DNA from: Solobacterium sp.
GTDB lineage: Bacteria; Bacillota_I; Bacilli_A; Erysipelotrichales; Erysipelotrichaceae
Direction: 5' to 3'
NCBI GenBank assembly: GCA_024680365.1
Contig: JAILCN010000026.1
Coordinates: 1 to 34,875, forward strand
Length of the DNA stretch: 34,875 nucleotides
The translations under genes were made by a program, and so were the position numbers. Shown piece by piece: positions 421-34,875 of this stretch (position 1 is its first letter; each line of letters opens with the position of its first letter). The notes beneath the pieces were generated by a model, which saw only the letters and a list, made by a program, of their open reading frames with translations, did no database searches and was not told the DNA's origin.

Positions 421-446
421 AAAAGACGCTTCAGAAGCGTCTTGCG
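416..446 (-). terminator. Rho-independent terminator of the MATE gene
   Basis: AAGACGCTTC (423-432) and GAAGCGTCTT (434-443) form a 10-bp inverted repeat around one A. Read on the minus strand, the stem is followed by a run of T (complement of the A-run 418-424). On the plus strand the trailing sequence is not T-rich, so it serves mainly the minus-strand gene that stops at 452. Confidence 0.8.
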
Positions 447-451
447 TAAAA

Positions 452-1810
452 CTATTCAACATTGAGACGGATGATCCAGTCCGTCTTTTTGATTTTCCAG
501 TAGCCCCAGATCGTTTTGATCAGATAATCTACACGCAGACTCAGATAGATAAAGAACGGATTGGCGTGCAGGACAAGCGCGGTGAAGAATCCGAGAGGGA
601 TATTCACGAGCCAGCAGGAGAGCAGGTCGATCCGGGTAAACGCTGCTGCCTGGCCGCCTCCTCTGAGGATGCCCTTGCACATGACCAGCTGCATGCATAA
701 GAAGAACACAGCGATGCTCGCGGAATACTTCAGGATGCCGGCAGTTTCGATCGCCTGCGGACTGACTTCAAAGAAGGATGTGATCACCGGTGCCAGAACC
801 TGCGTCAGAACAGCTCCGAAGATGCCGAGTACGAAGGCAATGTGGATCAGGTGATCGGAATAGAGGAGTGCCTGTTCCCTGTTTCCGGCCCCGATCGCGT
901 GACCGATGATGACGCTGGCACCCATGGAAATGCCGAACATGAACAGGGAAGAGATCGTCCAGATGTTGTGTACGATCGAATTGGCTGCGATATAGTACTC
1001 GCTGACGCGTCCGGTGATCATGGCGGCAGCTGAGACATTCAGGTTTCCGGTGACTTCTGTGATCAGGCTCGGCATACCCAGCCTGATGAAGTCGGAGCGC
1101 ATTTCCTTATCCATCTTCAGGAAGAGATCGGAAAAGCGGAAATGCAGCTTTTTGTCGATCATGAACATATACAGGAAGGAAATGATGAATTCCATCGTTC
1201 TTGCCATGACTGTGCCGACCGCTGCACCGGCTACGCCGAGTCTGGGCGCGCCGAGGTTTCCGAAGATAAACACCCAGTTGAAGAATACATTGGCGAAGCA
1301 GGCAAACAGCGAAGTGATCATGCCGAGGCGGTTGACGCCGGCGCTTCGCAGCAGAGTGACGATGATCTGACTGAAAGACTGAAACAGCAGACAGACGGAA
1401 AGAATGCGCAGATATGTGCCGCCGGTCTCAATGATGCCGGCATTGTTTGTATAGATCGAAGTGATCTGGGAAGGAAACAGGAAGGCCAGCGCAAAGAAGA
1501 CAATGTTGATCAGGACTGCAATGCGCAGACAGAAGGCGACCATGACTTTCACCTTGTCCGGACGTTTGTTGCCCCATGCCTGGGAACAGATGACCAGTGC
1601 CGCATTGCCAAGACCCATGAACACAGTCGCGTACAGATACGGAAACTGACTGCAGATATTGACGGAAGAAAGGGCAATGTCGCCGAGCTTTCCGACCATG
1701 ATCGTATCGATCAGGTTGACGAACATATTAATGACAGACTGCAGTGCAAGCGGCAGTGCGATGGCTGTCAGTTTAAAGAGAAACTCCCTGTCTCCGAAGT
1801 ATTTTTTCAT
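452..1810 (-). CDS. MATE family multidrug/organic cation efflux transporter
   Basis: 452 residues, the usual length for MATE (multi antimicrobial extrusion) proteins. The protein is hydrophobic with about 12 membrane segments. It opens with the typical N-terminal pattern (LPLALQSVINMFVNLIDTIMVGKLGD), has a GLGNAALVICSQ segment in the first half and the expected second MatE half (PSLITEVTGNLN, FGISMGASVIIGHAIGAGN). The family couples export of drugs or metabolites to Na+ or H+ influx; the substrate cannot be read from sequence. The ATG at 1810 is preceded by only a weak SD. It is divergent from the small ORF at 1975, and the gap carries two TTGG-N4-CCAA palindromes that could bind a shared regulator. 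Confidence 0.9.
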   Translation of the reverse strand: MKKYFGDREFLFKLTAIALPLALQSVINMFVNLIDTIMVGKLGDIALSSVNICSQFPYLYATVFMGLGNAALVICSQAWGNKRPDKVKVMVAFCLRIAVLINIVFFALAFLFPSQITSIYTNNAGIIETGGTYLRILSVCLLFQSFSQIIVTLLRSAGVNRLGMITSLFACFANVFFNWVFIFGNLGAPRLGVAGAAVGTVMARTMEFIISFLYMFMIDKKLHFRFSDLFLKMDKEMRSDFIRLGMPSLITEVTGNLNVSAAAMITGRVSEYYIAANSIVHNIWTISSLFMFGISMGASVIIGHAIGAGNREQALLYSDHLIHIAFVLGIFGAVLTQVLAPVITSFFEVSPQAIETAGILKYSASIAVFFLCMQLVMCKGILRGGGQAAAFTRIDLLSCWLVNIPLGFFTALVLHANPFFIYLSLRVDYLIKTIWGYWKIKKTDWIIRLNVE

Positions 1811-1882
1811 GCCTGTTTACCGTCCTGCCACTATCATAAATGAAAGAAGAATGAAAGAAAAACACAATGCACAATTTTTTAC

Positions 1883-1926
1883 TTGGAAAACCAACTTTTT
1901 TTAGAAGCAAAGTGTTGGATTTCCAA
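1883..1926. promoter_or_regulatory. Twin TTGG-N4-CCAA palindromes in a divergent promoter region
   Basis: TTGGAAAACCAA lies at 1883-1894 and TTGGATTTCCAA at 1915-1926, 32 bp apart start to start, about three helical turns. The second overlaps the putative -35 of the small ORF at 1975; the first lies upstream of the MATE start. This is a typical arrangement for a dimeric repressor or activator, but no regulator is known. Confidence 0.4.
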
Positions 1927-1946
1927 TCATTTCGGAATATTATAAT
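1915..1946 (+). promoter_or_regulatory. Promoter of the 35-codon ORF
   Basis: TTGGAT (1915-1920), a 17-bp spacer and TATTAT (1938-1943), overlapping a perfect TATAAT at 1941-1946. Transcription would start around 1950-1953, followed by a GGAGG SD at 1961-1965. Confidence 0.55.
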
Positions 1947-1974
1947 TGATGGGGATGTAAGGGAGGCAGTTTTT

Positions 1975-2082
1975 ATGGATGAGAGAAGCGGCACAGAACG
2001 GCAGATGCATGACAATTCAGGAAATGCTTCACCGCTTTCAGACGAGGAACTGACTGAGGTCATTGTTGAGATCAGGTTCTGA
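1975..2082 (+). CDS. Small acidic protein of 35 residues, unknown function
   Basis: The ORF begins MDERSGTERQ and ends LSDEELTEVIVEIRF. It is supported as a gene by its setting: a TATAAT promoter box at 1941-1946, a GGAGG SD nine bases before the ATG, and a strong terminator at 2097-2123 immediately after the stop, so it forms a complete transcription unit. It has no membrane segment or cysteine. The LSDEEL stretch resembles leader peptides of ribosomally made peptides, but there is no Gly-Gly and almost nothing follows, so that identity is not claimed. It is divergent from the MATE exporter and shares its regulatory gap. Confidence 0.55.
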   Translation: MDERSGTERQMHDNSGNASPLSDEELTEVIVEIRF

Positions 2083-2096
2083 AAGATAATTCTGAG

Positions 2097-2123
2097 CTGC
2101 TGTTGTTACAGCAGTTTTGTTTT
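2097..2123 (+). terminator. Rho-independent terminator after the small ORF
   Basis: CTGCTGT (2097-2103), loop TGTT and ACAGCAG (2108-2114) form a 7-bp stem followed by TTTTGTTTT. Confidence 0.75.
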
Positions 2124-2152
2124 GCGGCTTTTGATCAGAAACGGAGGCTTGT

Positions 2153-2299
2153 ATGATTTGCAGAAAATGCGGACGTTCCATTCCGGAACGGGCGGAGAAA
2201 TGCCCGTATTGCGGTACCAGGACAAAAAAAGGGTGGTCAAAGGAAGGCGAAAAGCTGATCTCGCCGATCACATCAATATTCAAAAAGAAGAGGAAATGA
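2153..2299 (+). CDS. Small zinc-ribbon protein (48 residues)
   Basis: It starts MICRKCGRSIPE and continues AEKCPYCGT, two CxxC knuckles 12 residues apart. This is the standard four-cysteine zinc ribbon of the small zinc-ribbon families, with a basic tail (FKKKRK). GGAGG at 2143-2147 lies five bases before the ATG. The stop is three bases before the HAD phosphatase start, and the phosphatase SD (GAGGAA) lies inside the last codons, so the two are translationally coupled. No separate promoter is visible after the terminator at 2097-2123, so expression may come from readthrough. The biochemical role is unknown. Confidence 0.7.
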   Translation: MICRKCGRSIPERAEKCPYCGTRTKKGWSKEGEKLISPITSIFKKKRK

Positions 2300-2302
2300 T
2301 CC

Positions 2303-3100
2303 ATGAAAGAAACGATCAGGCTGATCATGGCAGATGTTGACGGCACACTGCTCACCGACGAGAAGAAAATCACACTCAGGACAAGAGATGCCATTGCTTC
2401 TCTTGCGGCCAAAGGCATCCGGTTCGGCATCGCGACCGGCCGCTCTCCGTACGCAGTGCGCATGCTTGTGCATGACTGGGGCATCGCTGACTGCACTGAT
2501 CTGATCCTCGGCTTCAACGGCGGGGCTGTCTATGACACCGCGACCGGTGAGATGCAGGAGTTCTATCCGCTTTCCAGAGAGGGCAGGGAAGCCCTGATGG
2601 AAGATCTGAAAGGATTTGCCTGTGCGTTCGGCGTTTATGATCGTGAAGAATACCATGCGACAGTACGTGATGCGATAACAGAACGGACAGCCAATATGAA
2701 TCATTTCACGTTTGTGGAAGATGATCTGAAGCATTACGATACCGTCAACAAGGTGCTTGTGACGGCTGTGCCGGAAGAGATCGGCCGGATCCTGGCATAC
2801 TACAGCAGCCGGGAAAAACCGGAACTCTACGCTGTCAGCCAGAGCGGCAAAGACAGGCTGGAAGTCGTGAATCCCGAGCTGACGAAGTCAAAGGGAATGG
2901 CGATCCTGTGCCGGCAGCTGGGTCTCAGCAATGAAAATGTCCTGACCTTCGGGGATATGATGAATGACTATGAGATGATCCGCGACTATGTCGGTGTGGC
3001 GATGGGAAACGCGGATGAGCCGGTCAAAGAGGCAGCCCGCTATGTGACGGCGTCCAACAACGAAGACGGCATAGGCGTATTTATCGAAGAAAATCTGTGA
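2303..3100 (+). CDS. Cof-type HAD-IIB sugar-phosphate phosphatase
   Basis: 265 residues, normal for the family. The N-terminal motif DVDGTLL (residues 11-17) supplies the nucleophile and acid/base aspartates; the T in FGIATGRS is motif II; the lysine in LTKSKGMAI is motif III; GDMMNDYEM is motif IV. The type IIB cap occupies roughly residues 85-190. Family members dephosphorylate sugar phosphates, FMN or pyridoxal phosphate in the cytoplasm; the substrate cannot be deduced. It is co-translated with the zinc-ribbon protein and closed by a clear terminator. A second paralogue lies at 21627. Confidence 0.9.
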   Translation: MKETIRLIMADVDGTLLTDEKKITLRTRDAIASLAAKGIRFGIATGRSPYAVRMLVHDWGIADCTDLILGFNGGAVYDTATGEMQEFYPLSREGREALMEDLKGFACAFGVYDREEYHATVRDAITERTANMNHFTFVEDDLKHYDTVNKVLVTAVPEEIGRILAYYSSREKPELYAVSQSGKDRLEVVNPELTKSKGMAILCRQLGLSNENVLTFGDMMNDYEMIRDYVGVAMGNADEPVKEAARYVTASNNEDGIGVFIEENL

Positions 3101-3106
3101 TCTGTG

Positions 3107-3128
3107 AGGCATCCGCGGATGCCTTTTT
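3107..3128 (+). terminator. Rho-independent terminator after the HAD phosphatase
   Basis: AGGCATCC (3107-3114) pairs with GGATGCCT (3117-3124) across a two-base centre and runs into TTTTT. Confidence 0.85.
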
Positions 3129-3197
3129 CAGGTCCGGGAGACATGGTTGTTTTCGGGTTAAATACAAATGTGCATGATATGAAAACAAAGCAATTTG

Positions 3198-3211
3198 TGA
3201 AAATGTTTTCA
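3198..3211 (+). promoter_or_regulatory. cre-like palindrome (possible CcpA site) upstream of oppA
   Basis: TGAAAATGTTTTCA is an inverted repeat (TGAAAA/TTTTCA) and matches the Bacillus catabolite-responsive element consensus TGAAARCGYTTWCN at 13 of 14 positions; the central C is T. It lies about 65 bp upstream of the oppA -35. The presence of CcpA is inferred only from lineage. Confidence 0.45.
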
Positions 3212-3262
3212 TGTTGATTGAAAAATTCCACGAAAAAAATACAGAAATTTGTAAAGTTTTGC

Positions 3263-3290
3263 TTGAAAAGAAGAGTCCGTCTCTTATAAT
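3263..3290 (+). promoter_or_regulatory. SigA-type promoter of the opp operon
   Basis: TTGAAA (3263-3268), a 16-bp spacer and a perfect TATAAT (3285-3290). The start of transcription is expected near 3297, giving a leader of about 58 nt before the oppA ATG at 3355. Confidence 0.75.
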
Positions 3291-3308
3291 TGACTTATGT
3301 TTCCTAAG

Positions 3309-3337
3309 TGTTCACAAAATGTTCACAGGAAATGTTC
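3309..3337 (+). repeat. Tandem TGTTCACA boxes in the oppA leader
   Basis: TGTTCACA occurs at 3309-3316 and 3320-3327, with a partial copy (ATGTTCTG) from 3332. Spacing is 11-12 bases, one helical turn, just downstream of the transcription start. It could be an operator or a leader RNA element; no known regulator is assigned. Confidence 0.4.
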
Positions 3338-3354
3338 TGAAAAGGGAGGACAAT

Positions 3355-5028
3355 ATGAAATTCAAGAAATCCTTATGTGCACTGTTAGCTGCAGCGTTAC
3401 TGGCTGGCTGCAGCGGCGGAACACCAAGCGGTGGAAGCAGCGGAAGCGGCGGTTCCGGAGAACCTGCAGCTCCTAAGTCCATCACTGTCGCGATCACTGA
3501 TGACCTGAACACAATGGACCATCATGTCGCTACAGACGGACGTTCCTTCATCTTCCATTCACTCTGCATCGGCGGTCTCGCCGAACTCGACGCTGACGGA
3601 CAGCCTCAGCCTGACCTGGCTGAAAAGTGGGATGTCAGTGAAGACGGCAAAACCTACACATTCCATCTGAGAGACGGCATCAAGTGGTCCAACGGCGATC
3701 CTGTCACAGCAAACGACTTCGTTTACAGCTGGAGACGTCTGGTTGACCCTGCTCTCGCATCTGAATACAACTTCATTGTCAGCACGATCAACGTTACAAA
3801 CGCTGCAGCGTGCATCGACGGCTCCATGCCGCTCGACAAGCTCGGAGTTGAAGCAACAGACGATAAGACATTCGTTGTCCATCTGGATCTGCCCTGCGGA
3901 TTCCTGCTTGGTCTGATGGCTTTCCCGTCCTTCTTCCCTCTGAACCAGAAGTTCTTTGAAGCTCAGGGCGATCAGTACTCCCTGACGATCGACAACCTGC
4001 TCTTCTGCGGTCCGTACAAGATGACAACATGGCAGCCGGGTGCAGAATATGTCTTCACAAAGAACCCTGAATACTGGAATGCAGCAAACCAGGGCGACTA
4101 TGTTGACGAAGTTATCTTCAAGTTCGTTCCGGAAGCTCAGACAGCTGTTATGTCCTATAAGAACGGCGATGTTGATGTTGTTACTCTGACAAGTGAACTC
4201 GTTGAAGCAAACCAGAGCGATCCTGGCTACGTCTCCAGACTCCAGGGTTATGCATGGAGACTCAACCTCAACCAGAGCACATCCACGAAGGGTTTCGAAG
4301 GAAATACAAAGTTCCAGAACCTGAATCTCCGTAAGGCACTCGGCCTCTCCATCGACCGTGAAGCGATCGCAAAGGACGTTCTGAAAGACGGTTCCGTTGC
4401 TCTGGAAGGCTTCATCCCGAAGGAATTCGCTTATGGTCCGGATGGAACAGAATATCGTAAGGGCGTCGGCAACCTGCTGGCTTATGATGTAGCAGCTGCT
4501 GCTGAAGCATACGAACAGGCTAAGAAGGAACTCGGCGGCGACGTTACAGTTGAACTGCTGTATGAAGACTCCGAAGCTTCCAAGGCTGTCGCTGAAAACA
4601 TTCAGAGCATGTGGGTCAAGGCTCTGCCGGGAATCACAGTCAACCTCGCTTCCAAGACAAAGAAGGAAAGACTGGCTCTCATGAACAACCTCGAATATGA
4701 GATCGGTCTGACAAGATGGGGCCCGGACTATGCTGACCCTCAGACATATCTGGATCTGTTCAAGTCCAACCTGCCTGGATACAACAACTACTACTTCAAT
4801 GACGAATACGATGCATACCTCGACAAGGGCGAAACAGGCGCAGACGCTGCTGATGCAGCTGCACGCTGGGCTGACATGGTCGCTGCTGAAAAGATCATCG
4901 TTGAAGACTATGGCATCATCCCTGTTTACCAGAACGGCGGCGCGATGCTGATCAACCCGAAGGTCACAGGAATCGAATTCCACAGTGCCGGTGTTGACTC
5001 CTTCCGTCATGTGAAGAAAGCTGACTAA
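3355..5028 (+). CDS. oppA: Oligopeptide ABC transporter substrate-binding lipoprotein
   Basis: 557 residues. It starts at the ATG preceded by GGGAGGA (3344-3350). The N-terminus is a lipoprotein signal (MKFKKSLCALLAAALL) with lipobox LAGC, so the mature protein is anchored outside the membrane. A Gly/Ser linker follows. The SBP family 5 body shows its signature (AEKWDVSEDGKTYTFHLRDG, then KWSNGDPVTANDFVYSW) around residues 75-120, and the typical RKALGLSIDREAIAKDVL near residue 325. It captures peptides and hands them to OppBC. It has its own promoter, and the hairpin at 5058-5090 probably sets its level above that of the permease genes. The dipeptide homologue DppA is a less likely alternative. 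Confidence 0.92.
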   Translation: MKFKKSLCALLAAALLAGCSGGTPSGGSSGSGGSGEPAAPKSITVAITDDLNTMDHHVATDGRSFIFHSLCIGGLAELDADGQPQPDLAEKWDVSEDGKTYTFHLRDGIKWSNGDPVTANDFVYSWRRLVDPALASEYNFIVSTINVTNAAACIDGSMPLDKLGVEATDDKTFVVHLDLPCGFLLGLMAFPSFFPLNQKFFEAQGDQYSLTIDNLLFCGPYKMTTWQPGAEYVFTKNPEYWNAANQGDYVDEVIFKFVPEAQTAVMSYKNGDVDVVTLTSELVEANQSDPGYVSRLQGYAWRLNLNQSTSTKGFEGNTKFQNLNLRKALGLSIDREAIAKDVLKDGSVALEGFIPKEFAYGPDGTEYRKGVGNLLAYDVAAAAEAYEQAKKELGGDVTVELLYEDSEASKAVAENIQSMWVKALPGITVNLASKTKKERLALMNNLEYEIGLTRWGPDYADPQTYLDLFKSNLPGYNNYYFNDEYDAYLDKGETGADAADAAARWADMVAAEKIIVEDYGIIPVYQNGGAMLINPKVTGIEFHSAGVDSFRHVKKAD

Positions 5029-5057
5029 TTCTGTAACTTCTTAACTGAATGCAAACT

Positions 5058-5090
5058 ACGCAATAGAGCGGACCAACCGCTCTATTGCGT
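5058..5090 (+). terminator. Stable intercistronic hairpin between oppA and oppB
   Basis: ACGCAATAGAGCGG (5058-5071) and CCGCTCTATTGCGT (5077-5090) form a perfect 14-bp stem with loop ACCAA. Only TATTAT follows, not a full T-run, so it probably acts as a partial terminator or mRNA 3'-end stabiliser that raises oppA transcript over oppBCDF. Confidence 0.7.
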
Positions 5091-5144
5091 TATTATCAAT
5101 CTGCTTTGAACGCAAGTTCATCCCAAAAGAAAGGAAAACAGATC

Positions 5145-6077
5145 ATGAAAAAATACATCCTGAAGCGTGTATTGATCAGTCTGCTGACCCTGCTTGCCAT
5201 TCTTCTCGTACTTTTCCTTCTGCTGTCGTTCATGCCGGGTTCTCCGTTCAATGACGAAAAACTGACAGAAGCACAGAAAATTGCACTGTATGCGAAATAT
5301 GGACTGGATCAGCCGTTCTTTATACGATTTATCAAATACGTCATGGCTATGATGAAAGGCGACCTGGGTGTTTCCTATGTTATTAACAAGAACAAGCCGG
5401 TTGCTGAAATGCTGGCCGGACCGCTGGTTCTTTCGATCCGCATCGGTGCCAGAGGCATGCTGCTGGGTACTGCTGTAGGTCTGCTGCTGGGTATCGCGGC
5501 TGCTCTGAATCACAACAGCTGGGTCGACTCCCTCTGTTCCGTTGTTTCGATCGTCGGTGTCTCCGTTCCGTCCTATGTATTCGCGCTTCTGCTTGCGTAC
5601 TACGTGGGATTCAAGCTCGGATGGCTTCCGGTATTATACAGCTCCAAGGCTGTCGCCAAGAGTATGATCGGTCCGATGATCGCTCTTGCGATGAGCCCGA
5701 TGGCCAGCGTATCCCGTTTTACCCGTTCCGAAATGATCGATGTCCTGAATTCTGACTATGTGCAGCTTGTTCAGGCAAAAGGCGTCAGACAGAACAATCT
5801 GATCCTGCATCATGCCCTCCGCAACACCCTGATCCCGATCATCACGATCATGGGACCGATCCTCGTTAACCTGCTGACAGGTTCGATGGTCGTTGAAAAG
5901 GTATTCGGCGTTCCGGGCATCGGTACACTGATGGTCACCGCAATCGGTTCCAACGATTATAACGTTGTTATCATGTGCGCGTTCGTCTATTCGGCAATGT
6001 ACATTGTCATGATGCTGATCATTGATATCCTGTACGGCGTCATCGACCCGAGAATCCGTGTCGCAAAGGGGGACTGA
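5145..6077 (+). CDS. oppB: Oligopeptide ABC transporter permease, OppB type
   Basis: 310 residues, six predicted membrane segments. The first (KRVLISLLTLLAILLVLFLLLSFMPG) carries the usual OppB N-terminal pattern with MPGSPF just outside. The EAA loop that docks to the ATPases is seen as DYVQLVQAKGVRQNNLILHHALRN (about residues 203-226). The ATG at 5145 has AGAAAGGA nine bases upstream; an in-frame TTG further up lies inside the hairpin and is rejected. It forms the membrane pore with OppC. Confidence 0.92.
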   Translation: MKKYILKRVLISLLTLLAILLVLFLLLSFMPGSPFNDEKLTEAQKIALYAKYGLDQPFFIRFIKYVMAMMKGDLGVSYVINKNKPVAEMLAGPLVLSIRIGARGMLLGTAVGLLLGIAAALNHNSWVDSLCSVVSIVGVSVPSYVFALLLAYYVGFKLGWLPVLYSSKAVAKSMIGPMIALAMSPMASVSRFTRSEMIDVLNSDYVQLVQAKGVRQNNLILHHALRNTLIPIITIMGPILVNLLTGSMVVEKVFGVPGIGTLMVTAIGSNDYNVVIMCAFVYSAMYIVMMLIIDILYGVIDPRIRVAKGD

Positions 6078-6080
6078 CAA

Positions 6081-7124
6081 ATGAGTGAAATAACAAAGAA
6101 AACAGTTCCTGTTCTGACCGACGAGATCGTCGATGACTATTCGGCGGAAGATTTTGTCTTTGTCCAGCAGAACGAACGTCTGACCGACAAGGTCTATGAA
6201 GCGACATCCTATCTCAGAGATGTCTGGATCAATTTCTCCAAGAACAAAGGCGCTGTCGTCGGCATGATCATTATTTCCGTGATCATTCTCTTCGCGGTCG
6301 TCGGCCCGATGGTCTCCGGCTTCAGATATGATGACATCAATCTGGCGCACCAGAGCCTTCCGCCCCGTATTCCGGGACTGGAAAAGATCGGCCTGTTCAA
6401 TGGTTTTGAAAACGGTGTCAACGTCTATGAGAAGAAAGGCCTGATGGATGTATATTACTGGTTCGGAACAGACACCAACGGAAGAGACCTCTTCACCCGT
6501 GTCTGGGAAGGCACACGTATTTCCCTGAGCATCGCCCTGATCGCGGTCACTGTCGATATCATTATCGGCATGTCCTACGGTCTGATCTCCGGCTACTTCG
6601 GAGGCAAGGTCGATATGATCATGCAGAGAGCTGTCGAGATCCTCAACGGTATCCCGACCCTGATCCTGGTCACCCTGCTTGGCATGGTCCTGCCGCGAGG
6701 CATGACATCCATCATCGTTGCCCTGATGATCACCGGCTGGATCGGCATGTCGCGTATTTCACGCGCGGAAGTGCTGAAGCTGAAGGAATCTGAGTATATC
6801 CTGGCTTCCCGTACTCTCGGCGCGAAGAACTTCGCAATCATCTTCAAGGATATTCTTCCGAATATCTTCGGACAGCTGATCACAATGGCAATGTTCTCAG
6901 TACCGAGCGCGATCTTTACCGAAGCGTACCTGTCCTTCGTAGGTCTGGGTATTCCGGCACCGGCAGCTTCTCTTGGTACCCTGATCTCTGACGGATACAA
7001 GTCCATGACTGTGCATCCGTTCATGATCATCAGCGGTATCATCGTTCTGGCTCTGCTGATGCTCAGCTTCAACCTGTTCGCGGATGGTCTGCGTGACGCG
7101 TTTGACCCGAACCAGAAGCACTAA
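6081..7124 (+). CDS. oppC: Oligopeptide ABC transporter permease, OppC type
   Basis: 347 residues. A soluble N-terminus of about 50 residues precedes the first membrane span (GAVVGMIIISVIILFAVVGPMVSG), as in the OppC_N domain, followed by a periplasmic-side segment and the five-helix core. The motif WFGTDTNGRDLFTRVWEGTRISL is characteristic of OppC/DppC, and the EAA loop appears as ESEYILASRTLGAKNFAIIFKDILPN. It starts three bases after oppB, with GGGGG in the oppB tail as SD. It is the heterodimer partner of OppB. Confidence 0.92.
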   Translation: MSEITKKTVPVLTDEIVDDYSAEDFVFVQQNERLTDKVYEATSYLRDVWINFSKNKGAVVGMIIISVIILFAVVGPMVSGFRYDDINLAHQSLPPRIPGLEKIGLFNGFENGVNVYEKKGLMDVYYWFGTDTNGRDLFTRVWEGTRISLSIALIAVTVDIIIGMSYGLISGYFGGKVDMIMQRAVEILNGIPTLILVTLLGMVLPRGMTSIIVALMITGWIGMSRISRAEVLKLKESEYILASRTLGAKNFAIIFKDILPNIFGQLITMAMFSVPSAIFTEAYLSFVGLGIPAPAASLGTLISDGYKSMTVHPFMIISGIIVLALLMLSFNLFADGLRDAFDPNQKH

Positions 7125-7136
7125 GGAGGACGGAAC

Positions 7137-8276
7137 ATGACTGTATTTCAGAAAAAACCGAAAGATGAACGAGTTCTGTCTGTCCGCAACCTGAACATTT
7201 CCTTTGAGACAGCCAACGGCACTGTCAAAGCGATCCGGGGCGTCCGCATGGACCTTTACAGAGGTGAAACGATCGCCATCGTCGGTGAATCCGGCTCCGG
7301 CAAATCCGTCACCGTAAAGACCATCATGGGCATCCTCGCTTCCAACGGCAAAATTGACAGCGGCTCGATCATGTATACCTTCACCAATGAAAAGGGTGAA
7401 AAAGAAACTGTCGACATGACAAAACTGTCGCAGAAAGAGATCCGTTACAGATTCAACGGAAAACACATCGCTATGGTTTTCCAGGACCCGATGACTTCCC
7501 TCGATCCGACCATGACCATCGGCAAGCAGATCATGGAAGGAATGCTCCTGCATGAGAAGATCTCGAAGCAGGAAGCGAAAGAGAGAGCAATCAAGCTTCT
7601 GACGGATGTCGGCATCGAAAATCCTGACAAGCGTTTCAAGCAGTATCCGCATCAGCTTTCCGGCGGTATGCGTCAGCGTGTCGTTATTGCGATCGCGCTG
7701 TCCTGCAACCCGGACATCCTGATCTGCGACGAGCCTACGACCGCTCTTGACGTAACGATCCAGGCGAAGATCCTTGAACTCATCAAGAAGATCCAGGATG
7801 AAAAGCAGATCTCGGTCATTTACATTACCCACGACCTCGGCGTTGTTGCGAAAGTCGCTGACTATGTCGACGTCATGTATGCCGGACGCATTATTGAAAA
7901 AGGCAACATCAACGAAGTATTCTACGATCCCCGTCATCCGTATACATGGGGCCTGCTGGCTTCCATGCCGGATACAGATACGGATTCCAAGCGTCTGTTT
8001 GCGATCCCCGGTACGCCTCCCAACCTGCTTGAGGAGATCACCGGCGACGCGTTCGCGCCCCGCAATCCGTACGCGCTGGCGATCGACTACCAGGCTGAGC
8101 CTCCGATGTTCACCGTCGGCGGACAGCACAGAGTCGCTTCCTGGCTCTGCGATCCGAGAGCTCCGCAGATCGATCTGCCTGACCAGCTGAAAGACAGACT
8201 GGAAAGAATGCGTGCCGAAAACGAAGCGATCAACGCAGTAGCAGCTGAGATCCAGCAGAACAGGGAAGGAGTGTAA
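7137..8276 (+). CDS. oppD: Oligopeptide ABC transporter ATPase, OppD type
   Basis: 379 residues. Walker A GESGSGKS (about residues 51-58), Q-loop [13 protein letters not shown] signature LSGGMRQR, Walker [13 protein letters not shown] and switch His in YITHDLGVV are all intact. The C-terminal oligopeptide transport extension with [12 protein letters not shown] is present. It energises import together with OppF. The start has a perfect AAGGAGG. The last 60 residues, which in OppD homologues often carry Fe-S-linked cysteines, contain only one cysteine (SWLCDPRAP), so a cluster is not indicated. Confidence 0.93.
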
Positions 8277-8281
8277 GAAAT

Positions 8282-9241
8282 ATGACAACGATCGATTATA
8301 ATTCCGAACCTCTTCTCCATGTCGAAGGCCTCAAACAGCACTTCAAGATCACCCGTACCTACACGACCAAGGCAGTTGACGGCATCAGCTTCGACATCTA
8401 TTCCGGCGAGACATACGGACTTGTCGGTGAATCCGGATCCGGCAAATCAACGACCGGCCGGACACTGATCCGCCTGTATGAACCGACGGACGGCAAGATC
8501 ATCTTTGACGGACATGATATCTCCGGCAAGCTGACAAAAACTGACGAAGCCTACCTCCGCCAGAATATGCAGATGATCTTCCAGGATCCGATGGCATGTC
8601 TGAATCCCCGCAAAAAGGTCATGCAGATCATTGCCCAGGGTCTTGAGATCCATCATCTGTACAGCTCAAAGCAGGAACTGGAAGAAAAAGTCTATGCGAT
8701 CCTGGACAAGGTTGGTCTTTCCAGAGAGCACGCGACCCGTTATCCCCAGCAGTTCTCCGGCGGTCAGAGACAGCGTATCGGCATCGCCAGAGCGCTTGTC
8801 ATGAATCCGAAGCTTGTCATCGCTGACGAAGCGATCTCAGCCCTGGACGTTTCCATCCAGGCGCAGGTCGTCAACCTGATGCGTGACCTGCAGGATGAAC
8901 TGGGAACGACATATCTGTTCATTGCCCACGACCTTTCCATGGTCAAGTACATCTCTGACCGGATCGGCGTCATGCATCTGGGTCATATCGTTGAGACAGG
9001 AACGACAGATGAGATCTTCGAGAATCCGATCCATCCGTATACACGCTCACTGCTCTCCGCGATCCCGCACCCGAATCCGATCGTTGAAAAGGCAAGAATT
9101 GCCCTGACATACGACAAGGAAAAGGAAGGCGTCGACTACACAAAGGGAACGATTCACAACATGACGAAGACACACTATGTCCTCGGCACAGACGAAGAGT
9201 TCGCAAAGTGGCAGAAAGAAGCAGAAAACTTCAAGCTTTGA
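8282..9241 (+). CDS. oppF: Oligopeptide ABC transporter ATPase, OppF type
   Basis: 319 residues. Walker [14 protein letters not shown]-loop [14 protein letters not shown], signature [15 protein letters not shown], Walker [14 protein letters not shown], and H-loop [14 protein letters not shown] are visible. The Walker B proline usual in DEP is Ala here (DEA), outside the catalytic Asp-Glu pair. Second ATPase of the permease, last gene of the operon, five bases after oppD and closed by a terminator. Confidence 0.93.
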
Positions 9242-9248
9242 CAGTAAG

Positions 9249-9274
9249 GAAGAGACTTCGGTCTCTTCTTTCGT
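9249..9274 (+). terminator. Terminator of the opp operon
   Basis: GAAGAGAC (9249-9256) and GTCTCTTC (9261-9268) close an extra-stable UUCG tetraloop, followed by TTTCGTTT. A TATAAT at 9276-9281 directly follows and may start the cyclophilin transcript, although no -35 is recognisable. Confidence 0.85.
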
Positions 9275-9304
9275 TTATAATGAAGCAGAAACGAGGATCC
9301 ACGC

Positions 9305-9910
9305 ATGAAAAAAATACTGACTGCGCTGCTGGCTGTTCTGCTCTGTGCCAGCTGCGGGAAAAAGGCTCCGGAGGTCTCTCTGGACCCGAATTATAAGCAG
9401 GAAGATCCTTCCCTGATCCATCACGCAGAGATCACGGTAAAGGATATGGGCGTCATCAAAGTAGAGCTTGATGCCGGTGCCGCGCCGATCACGGTCGCTA
9501 ATTTTATCAAACTGGCGGAAAGCGGCTTCTATAACGGCCTGACATTCCACCGGGCGGTTGCGGATTTTATGATCCAGGGCGGCGATCCAAAAGGAAATGG
9601 GACCGGCGGCGCTGAAGAGATGATCAAAGGAGAATTTGCGGCCAATGATGTGGACAATCCCATCAGTCATCTAAAGGGCGTTGTTTCCATGGCAAGAAGA
9701 TCCATGGATTATGACAGCGCCAGCTCCCAGTTCTTCATCATGGTGGCGGACTATACGTCACTGGACGGCCAGTATGCGGCGTTCGGACACGTGACGGAAG
9801 GGCTTGAGATCGCTGAGAAGATCGCGAAGGAAGCGCAGCCGATCGACCGCAACGGCAGTCTGGCGCCTGACGAGCAGCCCGTCATTGAAAGCATTCAGAT
9901 CACAGATTAA
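9305..9910 (+). CDS. Cyclophilin-type peptidyl-prolyl cis-trans isomerase, lipoprotein
   Basis: 201 residues. The signal peptide MKKILTALLAVLL ends in lipobox CASC, so it is an exported lipoprotein. The cyclophilin core follows from about residue 38: GVIKVELDAGAAPITVANFIKLAESGFYNGLTFHRAVADFMIQGGDP contains the catalytic region (FHR, with Arg, and QGGDP), and then SSQFFIM. It probably assists folding of exported proteins at the outer face of the membrane. Bacillota also use PrsA (parvulin) for this; here the fold is clearly cyclophilin. TATAAT at 9276 and a GAGG SD support independent expression. Confidence 0.9.
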   Translation: MKKILTALLAVLLCASCGKKAPEVSLDPNYKQEDPSLIHHAEITVKDMGVIKVELDAGAAPITVANFIKLAESGFYNGLTFHRAVADFMIQGGDPKGNGTGGAEEMIKGEFAANDVDNPISHLKGVVSMARRSMDYDSASSQFFIMVADYTSLDGQYAAFGHVTEGLEIAEKIAKEAQPIDRNGSLAPDEQPVIESIQITD

Positions 9911-30495: not shown

Positions 30496-30504
30496 GTGAA
30501 TATT

Positions 30505-31836
30505 ATGCAGAAGAACGAAACATATACAGTCACATGTGAAGGATATGCGGAAGATGGTTCCGGCGTGACAAGGATCGACGGCTTTGTCATTTTTGTACCG
30601 GGTCTTCTGCGTTCTGAGACTGCCGAGATCGGCATTACAGCAATGCGCAAAACATACGGGTATGGACGGATCGTGAAACTGATCACCCGATCTGAGCACC
30701 GGGCGGAACCGATCTGTTCCGTCAACAGACCGTGCGGAGGCTGCCAGCTTCAGCATATGGACGACAGCGAACAGAGATGGTTCAAGGAAGACAAGGTCAG
30801 GAACTGTTTCCGGATGAACGCGGGAATGGAGCCTGAGATCCTGCCGATCATCAAAGCGGAACCGTATACCAGTTACCGCAACAAGGTACAGGTGCCGGTG
30901 CAGCTCGTGAAAGGAAAAACAGCGATGGGCTTCTATCAGCCCCGCACGAATACCATCATTGAGTATGATGTCTGTCATGTACAGACAGAGCTTTCCAACC
31001 GGATCACAGCATATCTGAAGAAACAGTTTGAGAAACTGTCCTGCACGAAAGAGATCCGACATGTCCTGATCAAGCACGCACATCGGAGCGGTCAGGTCAT
31101 GGTCTGTCTGGTTGTCAGAAACTATCCCTTTCATCACAGCGAAGAACTGAAGGATGATCTGATCAGTACATTCCCGGAAATCAGAAGCCTGTCTGTCATT
31201 GTCAACCGCAGGGAAGACAACGTGATCCTCGACGGCAAAGGAACTGTCCTGTACGGTACGCCGTATATTGAAGAGCAGCTGCTGGGTAGCACGTTCCGCA
31301 TCAGCGCCAGATCTTTTTTCCAGATCAATCCGTACGCGACGGAGAAGCTGTACAGCACAGCGATCGATTTTGCCGGCCTGAGCGGCAAAGAAACTGTCAT
31401 CGATCTTTACTGCGGCACCGGAACGATCGGCATCCTTTGCGCAAAGAAAGCAAAGAAGGTCTATGGCATTGAGATCGTCGCGGACGCGGTGAAAGACGCA
31501 AGGATCAACGCGAAGATCAATGATGTGAACAACATTGACTTTCTTAACGCTGACGCCGGCAAAGGCGCCCAGACTGTCATCCGTTCCAAGATCAAAGCCG
31601 ATGTCGTGATCGTGGATCCGCCCCGCAAGGGATGTTCCAAAGATACACTGGATGCGATCGAAACCATTGCGCCTGATAAACTGGTGTATGTTTCCTGTGA
31701 TCCGGCAACCCTGGCCAGAGATGTTAAGATCATGGCAGAAAAAGGATATGTTCTTGAGAAGGTGCAGCCGGTGGACATGTTCCCGATGACAGTTCATGTG
31801 GAATCCATCGTGTCTATGAAGAGACAAGACTCGTAG
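30505..31836 (+). CDS. rlmD: 23S rRNA (uracil-5-)-methyltransferase RlmD, TrmA/RumA family
   Basis: 443 residues from the ATG at 30505; GTG 30496 is in frame three codons upstream. An N-terminal TRAM domain is followed by Fe-S ligands Cys71, Cys77 and Cys80 (CSVNRPCGGC) and a fourth Cys in EYDVCHV. The SAM-binding motif is DLYCGTGTIGI, and the catalytic segment DPPRKGC with YVSCDPATLARD supplies the nucleophilic Cys. The C-terminal DMFPMTVHVESI carries the general-base Glu. It makes m5U in 23S rRNA (747 or 1939). The last codons, HVESIVSMKRQDS, lie in a segment repeated at 34720, where HIESIACLKRKDS is encoded. Confidence 0.93.
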   Translation: MQKNETYTVTCEGYAEDGSGVTRIDGFVIFVPGLLRSETAEIGITAMRKTYGYGRIVKLITRSEHRAEPICSVNRPCGGCQLQHMDDSEQRWFKEDKVRNCFRMNAGMEPEILPIIKAEPYTSYRNKVQVPVQLVKGKTAMGFYQPRTNTIIEYDVCHVQTELSNRITAYLKKQFEKLSCTKEIRHVLIKHAHRSGQVMVCLVVRNYPFHHSEELKDDLISTFPEIRSLSVIVNRREDNVILDGKGTVLYGTPYIEEQLLGSTFRISARSFFQINPYATEKLYSTAIDFAGLSGKETVIDLYCGTGTIGILCAKKAKKVYGIEIVADAVKDARINAKINDVNNIDFLNADAGKGAQTVIRSKIKADVVIVDPPRKGCSKDTLDAIETIAPDKLVYVSCDPATLARDVKIMAEKGYVLEKVQPVDMFPMTVHVESIVSMKRQDS

Positions 31837-31956
31837 AGATTCTGTATTTTGAGCATTATTACGAGCATTTCACATTCGGAGAGACAGACTGGTCAAAGAG
31901 GGGAAAACGTCTTGAAAAGTATCTCCGGGTGGCCGTCGCCATAGAACTCGTGACAG
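31801..31956 (+). repeat. Direct repeat copy 1, at and beyond the rlmD stop codon
   Basis: It aligns without gaps to 34720-34875 (offset 2919). From TGAAGAG through CGGGTG (31817-31935) I count about 14 differences in roughly 118 bases. Identity drops both before and after that block. It covers the last rlmD codons and the intergenic sequence. Confidence 0.8.
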
Positions 31957-31982
31957 TAGGAACATGGATCGGGGACTTATAG
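31803..31982 (+). pseudogene. Fragment of an unrecognised reading frame, copy 1
   Basis: In the frame one base ahead of the rlmD stop, codons 31836-31979 give 48 residues beginning EILYF, containing HYYEHFTFGETDWSKRGKR and ending VGTWIGDL before TAG at 31980. The upstream part overlaps rlmD out of frame and has no ATG, GTG or TTG nearby, so it looks like a fragment. Its identity with copy 2 is concentrated at the protein level: most base changes are silent in this frame. The family is not recognised. Confidence 0.45.
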
Positions 31983-32005
31983 ACAACTGAATATTTTGAT
32001 CAATC

Positions 32006-32055
32006 ATGGACGTTTATGAACTGCATTTCAGCAGTGAACAAACGTCCATTTTGTG
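32006..32055 (+). terminator. Long bipartite hairpin terminator
   Basis: ATGGACGTTT (32006-32015) pairs with AAACGTCCAT (32040-32049), with a nested ACTGC/GCAGT stem inside and TTTT after. It ends the rlmD transcript before the accessory module. On the minus strand the flanks are A/T-mixed, so the plus orientation is favoured. Confidence 0.65.
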
Positions 32056-32080
32056 AAACAGAAAGACAAGAAAATACACG

Positions 32081-32109
32081 TTGGGTATGCGTTTATGTGA
32101 TGATATAAT
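32081..32109 (+). promoter_or_regulatory. Promoter of the HTH-DUF1016 module
   Basis: TTGGGT (32081-32086), 17 bp, TATAAT (32104-32109). The expected transcription start lies inside the palindrome at 32112-32126. Confidence 0.7.
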
Positions 32110-32111
32110 AT

Positions 32112-32126
32112 ATACACAATGTGTAT
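32112..32126. promoter_or_regulatory. Palindromic operator candidate ATACACA-A-TGTGTAT
   Basis: A perfect 7-bp inverted repeat around a single A, starting two bases after the -10 box and spanning the predicted start of transcription. A second smaller inverted repeat, GTATC-N6-GATAC, follows at 32123-32138. The position suits autorepression by the HTH protein encoded next. Confidence 0.5.
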
Positions 32127-32154
32127 CGCAACTGATACAAGAAGGAGGATACTC

Positions 32155-32361
32155 ATGGAATTTAAAGACAGAATTGTTGAACTGCGGGAAAGTACCGGGA
32201 TGACTCGAAAGGAATTCTGTGAGTATTTTCAGATACCGTACAGAACGATGACAGAATGGGAACGGGATAACCGCCATGCGCCGGATTATGTCCTGCGTTT
32301 GCTGGAATACTATGTCAGGATGGAAGGATTGATGAAAAATAAACAAGATTCGGAAAACTGA
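32155..32361 (+). CDS. Small XRE-like helix-turn-helix protein (68 residues)
   Basis: Start ATG at 32155 after AAGGAGG; an in-frame ATG at 32119 lies within the operator and lacks an SD. Residues 5-50 fit a HTH_3/XRE-like fold: IVELRESTGMTRKEFCEYFQIPYRTMTEWERDNRHAPDYVLRLLEYY, with the recognition helix around PYRTMTEWE. The size and simplicity suggest a DNA-binding regulator or antitoxin-like protein. It is followed 35 bases later by the DUF1016 gene, with no terminator between, so the two are probably co-transcribed and autoregulated through the palindrome at 32112. Confidence 0.8.
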   Translation: MEFKDRIVELRESTGMTRKEFCEYFQIPYRTMTEWERDNRHAPDYVLRLLEYYVRMEGLMKNKQDSEN

Positions 32362-32396
32362 ATATACTGTTTCGACATTATAGAAGGGCGGTTATT

Positions 32397-33620
32397 ATGA
32401 GCAGAAATGAAAGTGAAAAACCCAGAGCAGTACGCTCACATGATATTTCGACAGACAGAGAATATGTTCAATGGATTTATGAAGTCAAACAGCGTTTTCG
32501 CAGTGCGCAGATCAAAGCTGCTGTCAAAGTCAATTCTGAACAGCTGCTTTTCAACTGGCAGTTAGGACGGGATCTTGTTGTGCGCAAAGCTGAAGAAAAA
32601 TGGGGTTCCGGTATTGTTGAACAGGTAAGTCTTGATTTACAGGCTGCTTTCCCTGAGGCGAAAGGCTTCTCAGCCCGTAATCTTTGGTTTATGAAGCAGT
32701 GGTACTCATTCTATGCCTTAAAAAAGAATGTCGTGGAACTTATTGCTGAACTGGAAAAGAACATTGACTTAAGCGATAAAAAACTGAAGCAAGTTGCTTC
32801 AGAAATTCAAAGGGAAAAACTGAATCAAGTTGATTCAGAAATTGCTTTTCCTGCCATTTTTGCATATGTTCCATGGATGCATCATGTTCTCATTATTCAG
32901 AAGTGCAAATCAGTCGAGGGAGCGCTGTTCTACATTAAGCGGACAGTTGAGGAAGGATTAAGCCGAAATGCGTTGGATAATTGTATCCGTGCAGACATGT
33001 ACCACAAGATTGGTACTGCGGTAACAAACTTCAATAAACTTCTTCCTGAGCCCCAGAGCAAACTCGCCCAGGAACTCCTGAAAGAAAACTATGATCTTGG
33101 CTTCATCGGACTTCCTGAGGAATACGATGAAATTGCCCTGGAAGAGGCAATTGAACAGCGGATGACACGTTTTCTGCTTGAATTGGGAGAAGGCTGGGCG
33201 TTTGTCGGCAGACAGAAAGAAATCATTATTTCCGGAAAGACAAGAAAGATCGATCTGCTGTTTTATCATATTTATCTGCGCTGCTATGTTGTAATGGAAT
33301 TAAAGGTAAAGCCTTTTATTCCGGAATATGCGGGAAAACTGAATTTTTATGTGAATGCTGCAGATGCGTTTATCCGCAGGGATAGTGATAATCCGACAAT
33401 CGGTCTGCTGATCTGCAAGGATATGGACCGAACCGAAGTTCAGCTGGCATTTCAGGGGATTACAACACCGATGGGTGTCGCAACTTATGATAATGTCAGA
33501 ATCAAAGAGATTCAGGAACATCTGCCCACAGCAGAACAGATCAGGAAACAGATTGAAATGGCGGAAGAAGAATACAAGTTAAATCTTCTTGAAAAAAGAA
33601 TGGACAGTTCAGAAGAATAA
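32397..33620 (+). CDS. PDDEXK nuclease family protein, DUF1016/YhcG type
   Basis: 407 residues. The N-terminal DUF1016_N domain (QLLFNWQLGRDLV, WGSGIVEQVSLDLQAAFPEAKGFSARNLWFMKQWY) occupies about residues 25-115. A linker with a duplicated 12-residue unit (KLKQVASEI, KLNQVDSEI; residues about 128-149) follows. The C-terminal nuclease domain (230-370) has the PDDEXK set: Glu in the helix before, Asp in KIDLLFYH, and Glu/Lys in MELK, then PEYAGKLNFY. The protein is predicted to be a DNA nuclease of the restriction-endonuclease fold; family members are often found in defence or mobile contexts, but the target is unknown. No restriction-modification genes lie nearby. The gene is AT-richer than its neighbours. 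Confidence 0.88.
   Translation: MSRNESEKPRAVRSHDISTDREYVQWIYEVKQRFRSAQIKAAVKVNSEQLLFNWQLGRDLVVRKAEEKWGSGIVEQVSLDLQAAFPEAKGFSARNLWFMKQWYSFYALKKNVVELIAELEKNIDLSDKKLKQVASEIQREKLNQVDSEIAFPAIFAYVPWMHHVLIIQKCKSVEGALFYIKRTVEEGLSRNALDNCIRADMYHKIGTAVTNFNKLLPEPQSKLAQELLKENYDLGFIGLPEEYDEIALEEAIEQRMTRFLLELGEGWAFVGRQKEIIISGKTRKIDLLFYHIYLRCYVVMELKVKPFIPEYAGKLNFYVNAADAFIRRDSDNPTIGLLICKDMDRTEVQLAFQGITTPMGVATYDNVRIKEIQEHLPTAEQIRKQIEMAEEEYKLNLLEKRMDSSEE
32779..32843 (+). repeat. Duplicated 29-bp palindromic unit within the DUF1016 gene
   Basis: Units at 32779-32807 and 32815-32843 (period 36) are identical except at two bases. Each holds a 19-bp palindrome: CTGAAGCAAGTTGCTTCAG at 32784-32802 and CTGAATCAAGTTGATTCAG at 32820-32838. 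The two differences (G to T, C to A) are at paired positions, so both palindromes stay perfect around the central G. Confidence 0.85.
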
Positions 33621-33714
33621 AACTCTGTTTGGAAAATACAGGAAATGAATGATTCTACGATTCGTTTGTATATTTCATATCATTATCTGGCTAAGATATG
33701 ACCGGAGGTTTCTT

Positions 33715-34455
33715 ATGGATCAGAAAAGAATCGGTCAGTTTATAGCTGACCTCAGGAAACAGAAGAATATGACACAGGCTGAAGTTGCAGCACAACTTGG
33801 TGTTACAGACCGTGCTGTCAGCAAATGGGAAAATGGAAGAGGAATGCCTGATCCGTCATATATGTTGCCGTTATGTGATCTGCTGGGAATCACAGTAAAT
33901 GAGCTTCTGTCCGGAGAGAAAATCGCGGATCATGTTGATTATCAGGCAAAAGCAGATGAAAACTTCAAACAGATGATTACGGATCCTGTAAAGTTGAGCA
34001 ATGTACGTTTGTTATCGATCTCATGTGCTATTTCCGGATTATTCACGCTGATTTGGGGAATCAGACTTACCGATAACAATTTCGGAAAGATGCTGTGCGG
34101 TATCTGCGGCATTGTTGCATTAACATCCGGGTTATTGTCTTATTTAAATGTCAGGAAGGTTATTCCGGAATCAGAATTCAGGATCAATTATTTTATACAT
34201 AAGAAAACAGAAAAAGCGGATTGCATAAAACTCGAAAGAATAAAAGAGATCGGCATCTTTGAAATGTACGGAACGGATGGGTACAGGGGCTGGTCTTCCA
34301 GATCACTGGATGAGATTACAGACTATATTCAGAAAAACTGCAATCTTTCAAAAACGGATTTTGAAGTGTTTACATCACCCGTTCATTTGCCAGGTGCAGG
34401 TACTGTGTGGAGCCATTCTGATGAATATGAAACAGTAACATCTGACAAGGAATAG
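33715..34455 (+). CDS. XRE-family transcriptional regulator with two membrane segments
   Basis: 246 residues from ATG 33715 with GGAGG six bases before; an ATG at 33649 in frame has a weak SD and would add 22 uncharacteristic residues. Residues 3-60 are a classical HTH_3 (IGQFIADLRKQKNMTQAEVAAQLGVTDRAVSKWENGRGMPDPSYMLPLCDLLGITVNELLSGE). Two hydrophobic spans follow (LLSISCAISGLFTLIWGI; MLCGICGIVALTSGLLSYL). A soluble C-terminal domain of about 90 residues ends the protein. Membrane-bound XRE regulators of this layout are common in Bacillota. It follows the DUF1016 gene by 94 bases. Confidence 0.85.
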   Translation: MDQKRIGQFIADLRKQKNMTQAEVAAQLGVTDRAVSKWENGRGMPDPSYMLPLCDLLGITVNELLSGEKIADHVDYQAKADENFKQMITDPVKLSNVRLLSISCAISGLFTLIWGIRLTDNNFGKMLCGICGIVALTSGLLSYLNVRKVIPESEFRINYFIHKKTEKADCIKLERIKEIGIFEMYGTDGYRGWSSRSLDEITDYIQKNCNLSKTDFEVFTSPVHLPGAGTVWSHSDEYETVTSDKE

Positions 34456-34586
34456 AAGAGAAAATATCTTAAGTTCTGAAAGATACGGCAATATCTGAAC
34501 TGAAAAAGCATCGTTGAAAAAGTAAATACCTGCAGATATGATGACGATGGAAATGCAGATCCATACATGATCACATTTGTCTGTAA
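34456..34586 (+). other. Intergenic stretch with an imperfect hairpin
   Basis: No gene is supported here. AGTTC-(TGAA)-AGATA (34472-34485) pairs with TATCT-GAACT (34492-34501) across a bulge, without a T-run, so a weak terminator at best. The remainder, up to the TAA at 34584, shows no further structure. Confidence 0.35.
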
Positions 34587-34875
34587 GACCGGGTTCGAAG
34601 ACAGGAAAACGGAGAAGACTTCAAACCGCCAGGGAGGAATTCGGCAAAAAACAAATTGTCGCAACTTCCTCCAGACGATGTTACCGGTTTGTCGCAACAT
34701 AGTAGTGACGACACACATAGAATCCATCGCCTGCCTGAAGAGAAAAGACTCATAGAGATTCTGTATTTCAAGCATTATTACGAGCATTTCACCTTCGGCG
34801 AGACCGACTGGTCGAAGCGTGGAAAACGCCTCGAAAAGTACGTCCGGGTGTCTATAGTAATTGAACTCGTTACTG
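34587..34875 (+). CDS. Unrecognised reading frame, copy 2, cut by the window end
   Basis: Frame open from after TAA (34584-34586) to the last base, 96 codons. It contains LSQLPPDD and LSQHSSDD in tandem, then IHRLPEEKRLIEILYF and HYYEHFTFGETDWSKRGKR, the part shared with copy 1. No ATG, GTG or well-placed TTG start is visible: TTG 34656 lies 17 bases after GGGAGGA. The frame may be a gene fragment, a frameshifted gene, or one that uses an unusual start. Function unknown. Confidence 0.4.
34720..34875 (+). repeat. Direct repeat copy 2
   Basis: Gap-free match to 31801-31956. In the rlmD-equivalent frame it encodes HIESIACLKRKDS and then TAG, the counterpart of the RlmD C-terminus HVESIVSMKRQDS. 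The repeat continues to the window edge and may extend beyond. Confidence 0.8.

What the first reader, a model, noticed from the sequence alone, without database searches (positions are those of the whole stretch)
31801..34875. Accessory module bracketed by a diverged direct repeat of the rlmD 3' end
The segment from the last rlmD codons onward (31801-31956) recurs gap-free at 34720-34875. About 2.7 kb of AT-richer DNA lies between, carrying an HTH protein, a DUF1016 nuclease and a membrane HTH regulator. Integrative elements that target the 3' end of a gene leave such flanking copies, and RumA/TrmA-family genes (rum) are documented integration sites of streptococcal ICEs. No integrase is visible and the copies differ at roughly 12% of bases, so an old insertion with its integrase lost, or a dispersed multicopy repeat, are both possible.
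Basis: partly seen in the sequence, partly recalled or inferred. Interest (0 to 1): 0.7.

Follow-up and report, generated by a model that had tools for sequence, protein, structure and literature searches.

The report
Decayed mobile element behind rlmD gene
A 2.9 kb piece of foreign DNA carrying a candidate phage-defence nuclease sits exactly at the end of a ribosomal-RNA methyltransferase gene; it is the stripped-down remains of a known kind of mobile element, and the repeat that frames it is the displaced tail of that element's lost integrase gene.

Summary
The repeat is real: 31801-31956 and 34720-34875 match gap-free at 128/156 (82%, not about 88%). It is not a duplicated chromosomal target. 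It is the left end of a family of elements that insert in the 3' end of rlmD-family genes, and it encodes the displaced C-terminal tail of a large serine integrase (LSR). In this family the attachment site lies inside the integrase gene, so integration swaps the 3' ends of rlmD and the integrase. This mechanism was published for streptococcal rumA ICEs (PMC4701971). The module's right end (34507-34712) is the relic 3' end of that integrase. The module is therefore an integrase-less, CIME-like relic carrying HTH + DUF1016 nuclease (PADLOC PDC-S02) + HTH genes. A second related element starts at 34720, where the contig ends. The same module (98.5% identical) occurs in a related genome behind a different rlmD paralogue, with identity collapsing at both att cores. 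A relative pair shows an empty and an occupied rlmD site. Among 79 public loci with the tail, about 50 lie directly behind an rlmD-family gene. A complete genome holds two intact ICEs whose integrase reads in frame into the tail when circularised in silico. New member of a known kind.

The parts
30496..31836 (+). rlmD (rumA) target gene; its last codons (from about 31801) are supplied by the inserted element
   Evidence: NCBIfam TIGR00479 rumA, E 1.3e-118. The tail HVESIVSMKRQDS* replaces the tails seen at empty sites such as HVETVVLMLRKNT*.
31795..31810 (+). attL core region CATGTG|GAATCCATCG; exact crossover bases inferred, not shown
   Evidence: Identity between window and G035 changes here from 61.5% (last 100 nt of rlmD) to 94%.
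31801..31982 (+). Left end of element 1: displaced 3' end of the serine integrase gene (tail ...LVEILYFEHYYEHFTFGETDWSKRGKRLEKYLRVAVAIELVTVGTWIGDL*), -1 frame relative to rlmD, no start codon of its own
   Evidence: The same tail is the in-frame C-terminus of an unsplit LSR in L198; a related tail is in frame in two in-silico circles of a complete genome. W1/W2 differences by codon position 6/1/15. No ORF with its own start is listed for this frame.
32006..32049 (+). Hairpin followed by TTTT, likely terminator carried by the element's left end
   Evidence: Fold of 31975-32065: -24.2 kcal/mol, z -3.84. Similar hairpin sequence follows the tail in relatives.
32119..32361 (+). 80-aa small HTH-like protein (cargo)
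   Evidence: Weak HTH matches only, E 0.04-0.06 in Pfam.
32397..33620 (+). DUF1016/YhcG PDDEXK nuclease-domain protein, 407 aa (cargo; candidate phage-defence gene)
   Evidence: Pfam DUF1016_N and YhcG_C; PADLOC PDC-S02, E 5e-125.
33649..34455 (+). 268-aa XRE-type HTH regulator with a hydrophobic middle part (cargo); start may be 33715
   Evidence: HTH_3 E 2.6e-15.
34507..34712 (+). Right end of element 1: relic 3' end of a large serine integrase gene (SIVEKVNTCRYDDDGNADPYMITFVCKTG...), frame broken near 34650
   Evidence: The joined relic-tail query is 54% identical over 87 positions to an LSR ORF in G070 and 53% over 68 to one in G005 (70 genomes); 50% over 32 aa to an LSR C-terminus in L034.
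34689..34711 (+). Right arm TTGTCGCAACATAGTAGTGACGA, imperfect inverted repeat of left-end arms of the common type (TTGTAGCAACACTATAGTCTCGA)
   Evidence: Pattern search in relatives: 13 of 16 matches lie at element ends known; the reversed control pattern is scattered over other genomes.
34713..34730 (+). Junction att between element 1 and element 2 (core ACACATA|GAATCCATCG)
   Evidence: Identity to G035 falls from 96.6% before to 54.5% in the 40 nt after.
34720..34875 (+). Left end (integrase tail) of a second, related element in tandem; truncated by the contig end
   Evidence: 82% to copy 1; G035 has a second tail of a different subtype at the same place.

Best explanation
The segment is an integrase-less, CIME-like relic of an ICE or IME that used a single large serine integrase to insert into the 3' end of rlmD (rumA). 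The attachment site of such elements lies inside the 3' part of the integrase gene. Integration exchanges 3' ends: rlmD receives a short new tail plus terminator from the element's left end, and the integrase loses its last roughly 55-60 codons, which remain behind rlmD as the 'repeat'. Deletion then removed nearly all of the integrase and any transfer genes, leaving the left end, three cargo genes (HTH, DUF1016 nuclease, HTH) and the last codons of the integrase at the right end. A second related element sits in the distal site, which puts a second copy of the left-end tail at 34720. Shown by sequence: the repeat, the identity of the tail as an integrase C-terminus, the integrase relic, the sharp boundaries, and presence at two different rlmD paralogues. 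Inferred: the recombination steps, the exact crossover bases, the identity of the second element, and any defence function of the cargo.
For: Repeat verified. The same module is 98.5% identical (2867/2912) in G035 but behind the other rlmD paralogue; identity is 61.5% just before the left core and 54.5% in the 40 nt after the right core, while the two genomes' rlmD1 regions are only 68-70% identical. Empty versus occupied site: G007 has uninterrupted rlmD followed by a choloylglycine-hydrolase-like gene; G061 has a 6.5 kb insert of two tandem modules, then the displaced rlmD 3' end and the same gene, 98.3% over 1190 bp starting at the core. Of 79 public loci with the tail, about 50 have it exactly behind an rlmD-family 3' end and three have integrase sequence upstream. 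L198 has an integrase ORF running unbroken into the tail; L184 (G005:C89) has the matching integrase with a replaced end. In complete genome G065, two ICEs join in silico to give integrases of 671 and 672 aa that include the tail, against 626 aa in the integrated state of the first. The window's right end matches LSR C-termini. No PF07508 recombinase gene in the own assembly. The mechanism is published for streptococcal rumA ICEs (PMC4701971), and the CIME/accretion concept is reviewed in PMC5704250.
Against: The contig ends in copy 2, so the distal rlmD 3' end and the second element were not seen. No excision or circular form of this module was observed. Between window and G035 the left tail is more diverged (about 91%) than the cargo (DUF1016 99.7%), with mismatches concentrated in 31816-32002, so part of the history may be homologous recombination between elements with related ends. 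The own assembly is a draft with 7.55% estimated contamination.
Confidence: 0.9

Rival explanations
1. Cargo exchange by homologous recombination: the HTH-DUF1016-HTH block moved between resident elements by RecA-mediated crossover in the shared left-end tail and right-end integrase relic, not by integrase action.
For: The left tail differs more (about 91%) than the cargo between window and G035, with a break near 31968-32002.
Against: The shared block ends abruptly at the att core on the right, and the relic up to the core is 96.6% identical; on the left, identity also changes at the core. The two copies sit behind different rlmD paralogues. The ends themselves still need an integrase-made element, so this modifies the best explanation rather than replacing it.
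Confidence: 0.2
2. Dispersed multicopy repeat not connected to rlmD (for example a transposon end or REP-like element).
For: Many copies exist in the genus and beyond, and many lie at contig ends: 25 of 87 hits end within 60 bp of a contig end.
Against: Only three copies in the own genome. Copies are mostly placed at one codon position behind rlmD-family genes or at another element's right end. The sequence is the C-terminus of an integrase.
Confidence: 0.03
3. The tail is an independently expressed small protein with its own function, and the repeat marks that gene rather than integrase remains.
For: Protein-like conservation across distant relatives and substitutions biased to third codon positions.
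Against: No start codon in frame in the integrated window copy; the same reading frame continues from an integrase in L198 and in the two G065 circles, which explains the conservation.
Confidence: 0.05

Closest known systems
Streptococcal ICEs/dICEs and IMEs with a single serine integrase inserted in rumA (Ambroset et al. 2016, PMC4701971; IMEs in PMC5704250)
   Same: Target gene rumA/rlmD; att inside the integrase gene; reciprocal exchange of 3' ends with a frame change in both proteins; only a short shared core.
   Different: Here the host is a Solobacterium-like Erysipelotrichaceae draft genome, more than one rlmD-family paralogue is used, and the element has lost nearly all of the integrase and has no recognisable transfer genes.
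CIMEs (cis-mobilizable elements) and tandem accretion (Pavlovic 2004, Bellanger 2011 as cited in PMC5704250)
   Same: Integration and transfer genes lost, both ends kept, another element in tandem.
   Different: Mobilisation was not tested; the best-known CIMEs use tyrosine integrases (from memory).
PADLOC PDC-S02 / DUF1016 (YhcG) PDDEXK nuclease
   Same: The cargo protein matches over nearly its whole length.
   Different: PDC-S02 is a candidate defence family; no activity has been shown for this protein.
Myxococcus phage Mx8 (attP inside the integrase gene; described in PMC4701971)
   Same: Integration changes the integrase C-terminus.
   Different: Tyrosine integrase and unrelated element.

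Membership tests
rumA-targeting serine-integrase ICE/IME family | Insertion in the 3' part of an rlmD/rumA-family gene | tested here: met
   Window junction at 31801 in rlmD; about 50 of 79 loci with the tail lie behind an rlmD-family 3' end.
rumA-targeting serine-integrase ICE/IME family | att site inside the integrase gene; exchange of 3' ends with frame change | tested here: met
   Unsplit integrase-tail ORF in L198, circles in G065, integrase relic at the window's right end, tail in -1 frame behind rlmD.
rumA-targeting serine-integrase ICE/IME family | Encodes a complete serine integrase | tested here: not met
   Only about the last 65-70 codons remain (34507-34712); no PF07508 in the own assembly. 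So it is a relic, not an active ICE/IME.
rumA-targeting serine-integrase ICE/IME family | Relaxase / conjugation genes | tested here: not met
   Only three cargo genes between the ends.
CIME | Both att sites kept, integration and transfer genes lost | tested here: met
   attL side and right-end junction present; genes absent. The right-hand site is a junction with a second element, not a plain attR.
CIME | Can be mobilised in cis or trans by a related element | not testable with these tools
   Suggested only by the same deletion derivative at two different rlmD paralogues in two genomes.
PDC-S02 candidate defence gene | Full-length DUF1016_N + YhcG_C architecture | tested here: met
PDC-S02 candidate defence gene | Protects against phage | not testable with these tools
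   Needs an experiment.

The most novel reading that the evidence does not exclude
The conserved integrase tail is a state switch: the serine integrase has its full C-terminus only when the element is excised, and integrase-less cargo units that keep both ends keep spreading among rlmD-family genes by borrowing integrases of resident ICEs, building arrays of small cargo modules behind rlmD.
Probability: 0.15. Interest if true: 0.55.

Novelty: new member of a known kind. Interest (0 to 1): 0.27.

Why it matters
It explains a common source of confusion in draft gut genomes: contigs that stop just behind rlmD, and short conserved reading frames that overlap the end of rlmD. It identifies the rlmD-family 3' end as a hotspot that can carry candidate defence genes in Erysipelotrichaceae. 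It also gives natural pairs of integrases with and without the tail (L198 versus L184; G065 circle versus integrated), which makes the question raised by Ambroset et al., whether the two integrase forms differ in function, directly testable.

Tried and rejected
The LSR of 659 aa in L025 (DUF4368 type) was considered as the family's integrase and set aside: it lies inside the element next to a MobA/MobL relaxase, its C-terminus does not resemble the integrases that carry the att site, and it is probably a nested element. Tail against plasmids: no match. The DUF1016 protein gave no relative in viral contigs, only relatives below 60% identity on plasmids, and at E <= 1e-100 no relative in 395 sampled genomes of the class apart from the window's own. 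A tail-only small-protein reading was rejected for lack of a start codon. In the G041 locus the tail copies are interrupted by a transposase-like gene and were not used as evidence.

Full report
Observation. The two copies at 31801-31956 and 34720-34875 align without gaps at 128/156 positions, 82% identity. They are the top direct-repeat family of the region, and copy 2 matches with E = 2.4e-39 in a whole-genome search. GC falls from mostly 0.47-0.57 to about 0.38-0.44 at the boundary. The gene content is as described. The window is a complete contig that stops inside copy 2. The own genome has one more copy, also at a contig end, directly behind a second rlmD-family gene.

What the repeat is. 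Of 60 genomes searched (own and relatives), 12 carry the sequence. Its context is nearly always the same: the last codons of an rlmD-family gene, then a stretch readable in the -1 frame that ends in a stop and is followed by a hairpin. The window's stretch has no start codon of its own. It is conserved as protein across distant relatives, and differences between the two window copies fall at codon positions 1/2/3 as 6/1/15, so it has a coding history. The gene it belongs to is a large serine integrase. In L198 an integrase ORF runs unbroken into the tail. In complete genome G065, two ICEs carry a related tail at the left end and a serine integrase at the right end; joining right and left ends in silico gives integrases of 671 and 672 aa that include the tail, whereas the integrated form of the first is 626 aa and ends in sequence read from the displaced rlmD end. 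L184 has the same integrase type as L198 with its end replaced.

What the right end is. Window 34507-34712 reads SIVEKVNTCRYDDDGNADPYMITFVCKTG..., which matches the C-terminal region of serine integrases: a joined relic-tail query is 54% identical over 87 positions to an ORF in G070 and 53% over 68 to one in G005 in a search of 70 genomes, and the relic is 50% over 32 aa to L034 in a single comparison. The frame is broken near 34650. So the module keeps the last codons of an integrase whose remainder is gone. No PF07508 recombinase gene is found in the own draft assembly.

Evidence for insertion. The same three-gene module is in G035 behind the other rlmD paralogue, 98.5% identical over 2912 positions. 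Identity is 61.5% in the 100 nt before the left core and 54.5% in the 40 nt after the right core, while the rlmD1 regions of the two genomes are 68-70% identical. In a relative pair, G007 has an uninterrupted rlmD followed by a choloylglycine-hydrolase-like gene. G061 has rlmD, 6.5 kb of two tandem modules, the displaced rlmD 3' end, and the same gene region, 98.3% identical over 1190 bp starting at the core. In a scan of one genome for each of 84,980 species, 79 loci encode the tail. A motif test classed 57 of 87 tail hits as directly behind an rlmD-family 3' end (about 50 distinct loci), 5 hits in 3 loci behind integrase sequence, 22 as other, and 3 without upstream sequence. Several of the 'other' cases look by eye like rlmD ends or other elements' right ends, but they were not counted. 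Twenty-five hits end within 60 bp of a contig end. Named hosts include Solobacterium, Lachnospiraceae and Faecalicoccus, and the source organism is probably a Solobacterium-like member of the Erysipelotrichaceae (inference from the near relatives).

Mechanism. Published work on streptococcal ICEs in rumA describes this arrangement: a single serine integrase, short direct repeats with one end in rumA and the other in the integrase gene, and reciprocal exchange of the 3' parts with a frame change (PMC4701971). Tandem accretion of decayed elements that keep attL and attR but have lost integration and transfer genes (CIMEs) is reviewed in PMC5704250. The window fits a CIME-like relic plus the start of a second element. 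The DUF1016 protein matches the PADLOC candidate defence family PDC-S02 with E = 5e-125; its function here is not tested.

Limits. The distal boundary is outside the contig. Excision was not observed. The left tail is more diverged between window and G035 (about 91%) than the cargo (98.5-99.7%), with mismatches concentrated in 31816-32002, so homologous recombination between elements with related ends may have contributed. Because both copies of the module share the same integrase deletion, the module appears to have moved, or been exchanged, after losing the integrase; this is inference. The crossover bases were not determined. The motif test was written after the first loci had been seen, so its counts describe the pattern and are not an independent statistical test.

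Noticed in passing
G000:C70:71915-73018 and G000:C229:12887-14008: The own assembly has two rlmD2-like paralogues besides rlmD1 and a third, longer one, where most relatives show at most three genes in all. This may be a real extra copy or part of the 7.55% estimated contamination.
   Followed up: no
L110 (G060:C84) and L225 (Oribacterium): A different, longer tail family (...LSKLNDAKHHIEFEVSLEDL...VSNLYIAQVKRKHGIIEHENYNQ...FKMI) is read in frame with rlmD in L110, so insertion there lengthens the methyltransferase by roughly 90 residues. It may be another integrase lineage using the same target.
   Followed up: partly
L032 (G027:C24), 9526-9876 of the reverse complement: A longer tail (116 aa) ending in a possible helix-turn-helix (ILGLSYSTYYYHKKHIKRAKYRK).
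   Followed up: no
G065:C1, about 2034960-2091700 (L178, L179): A second copy of the ICE sits outside rlmD, in an apparent secondary site between genes on the opposite strand.
   Followed up: partly
window 31816-32002 versus L023: Mosaic divergence: the left tail differs several times more than the rest of the module between two otherwise near-identical copies.
   Followed up: partly
L025 (G005:C48) 1-9700: A larger element behind rlmD with RepA_N, ParA, a ParB-like protein, a DUF4368-type serine recombinase and a MobA/MobL relaxase; the recombinase and relaxase may be a nested mobilizable element.
   Followed up: partly
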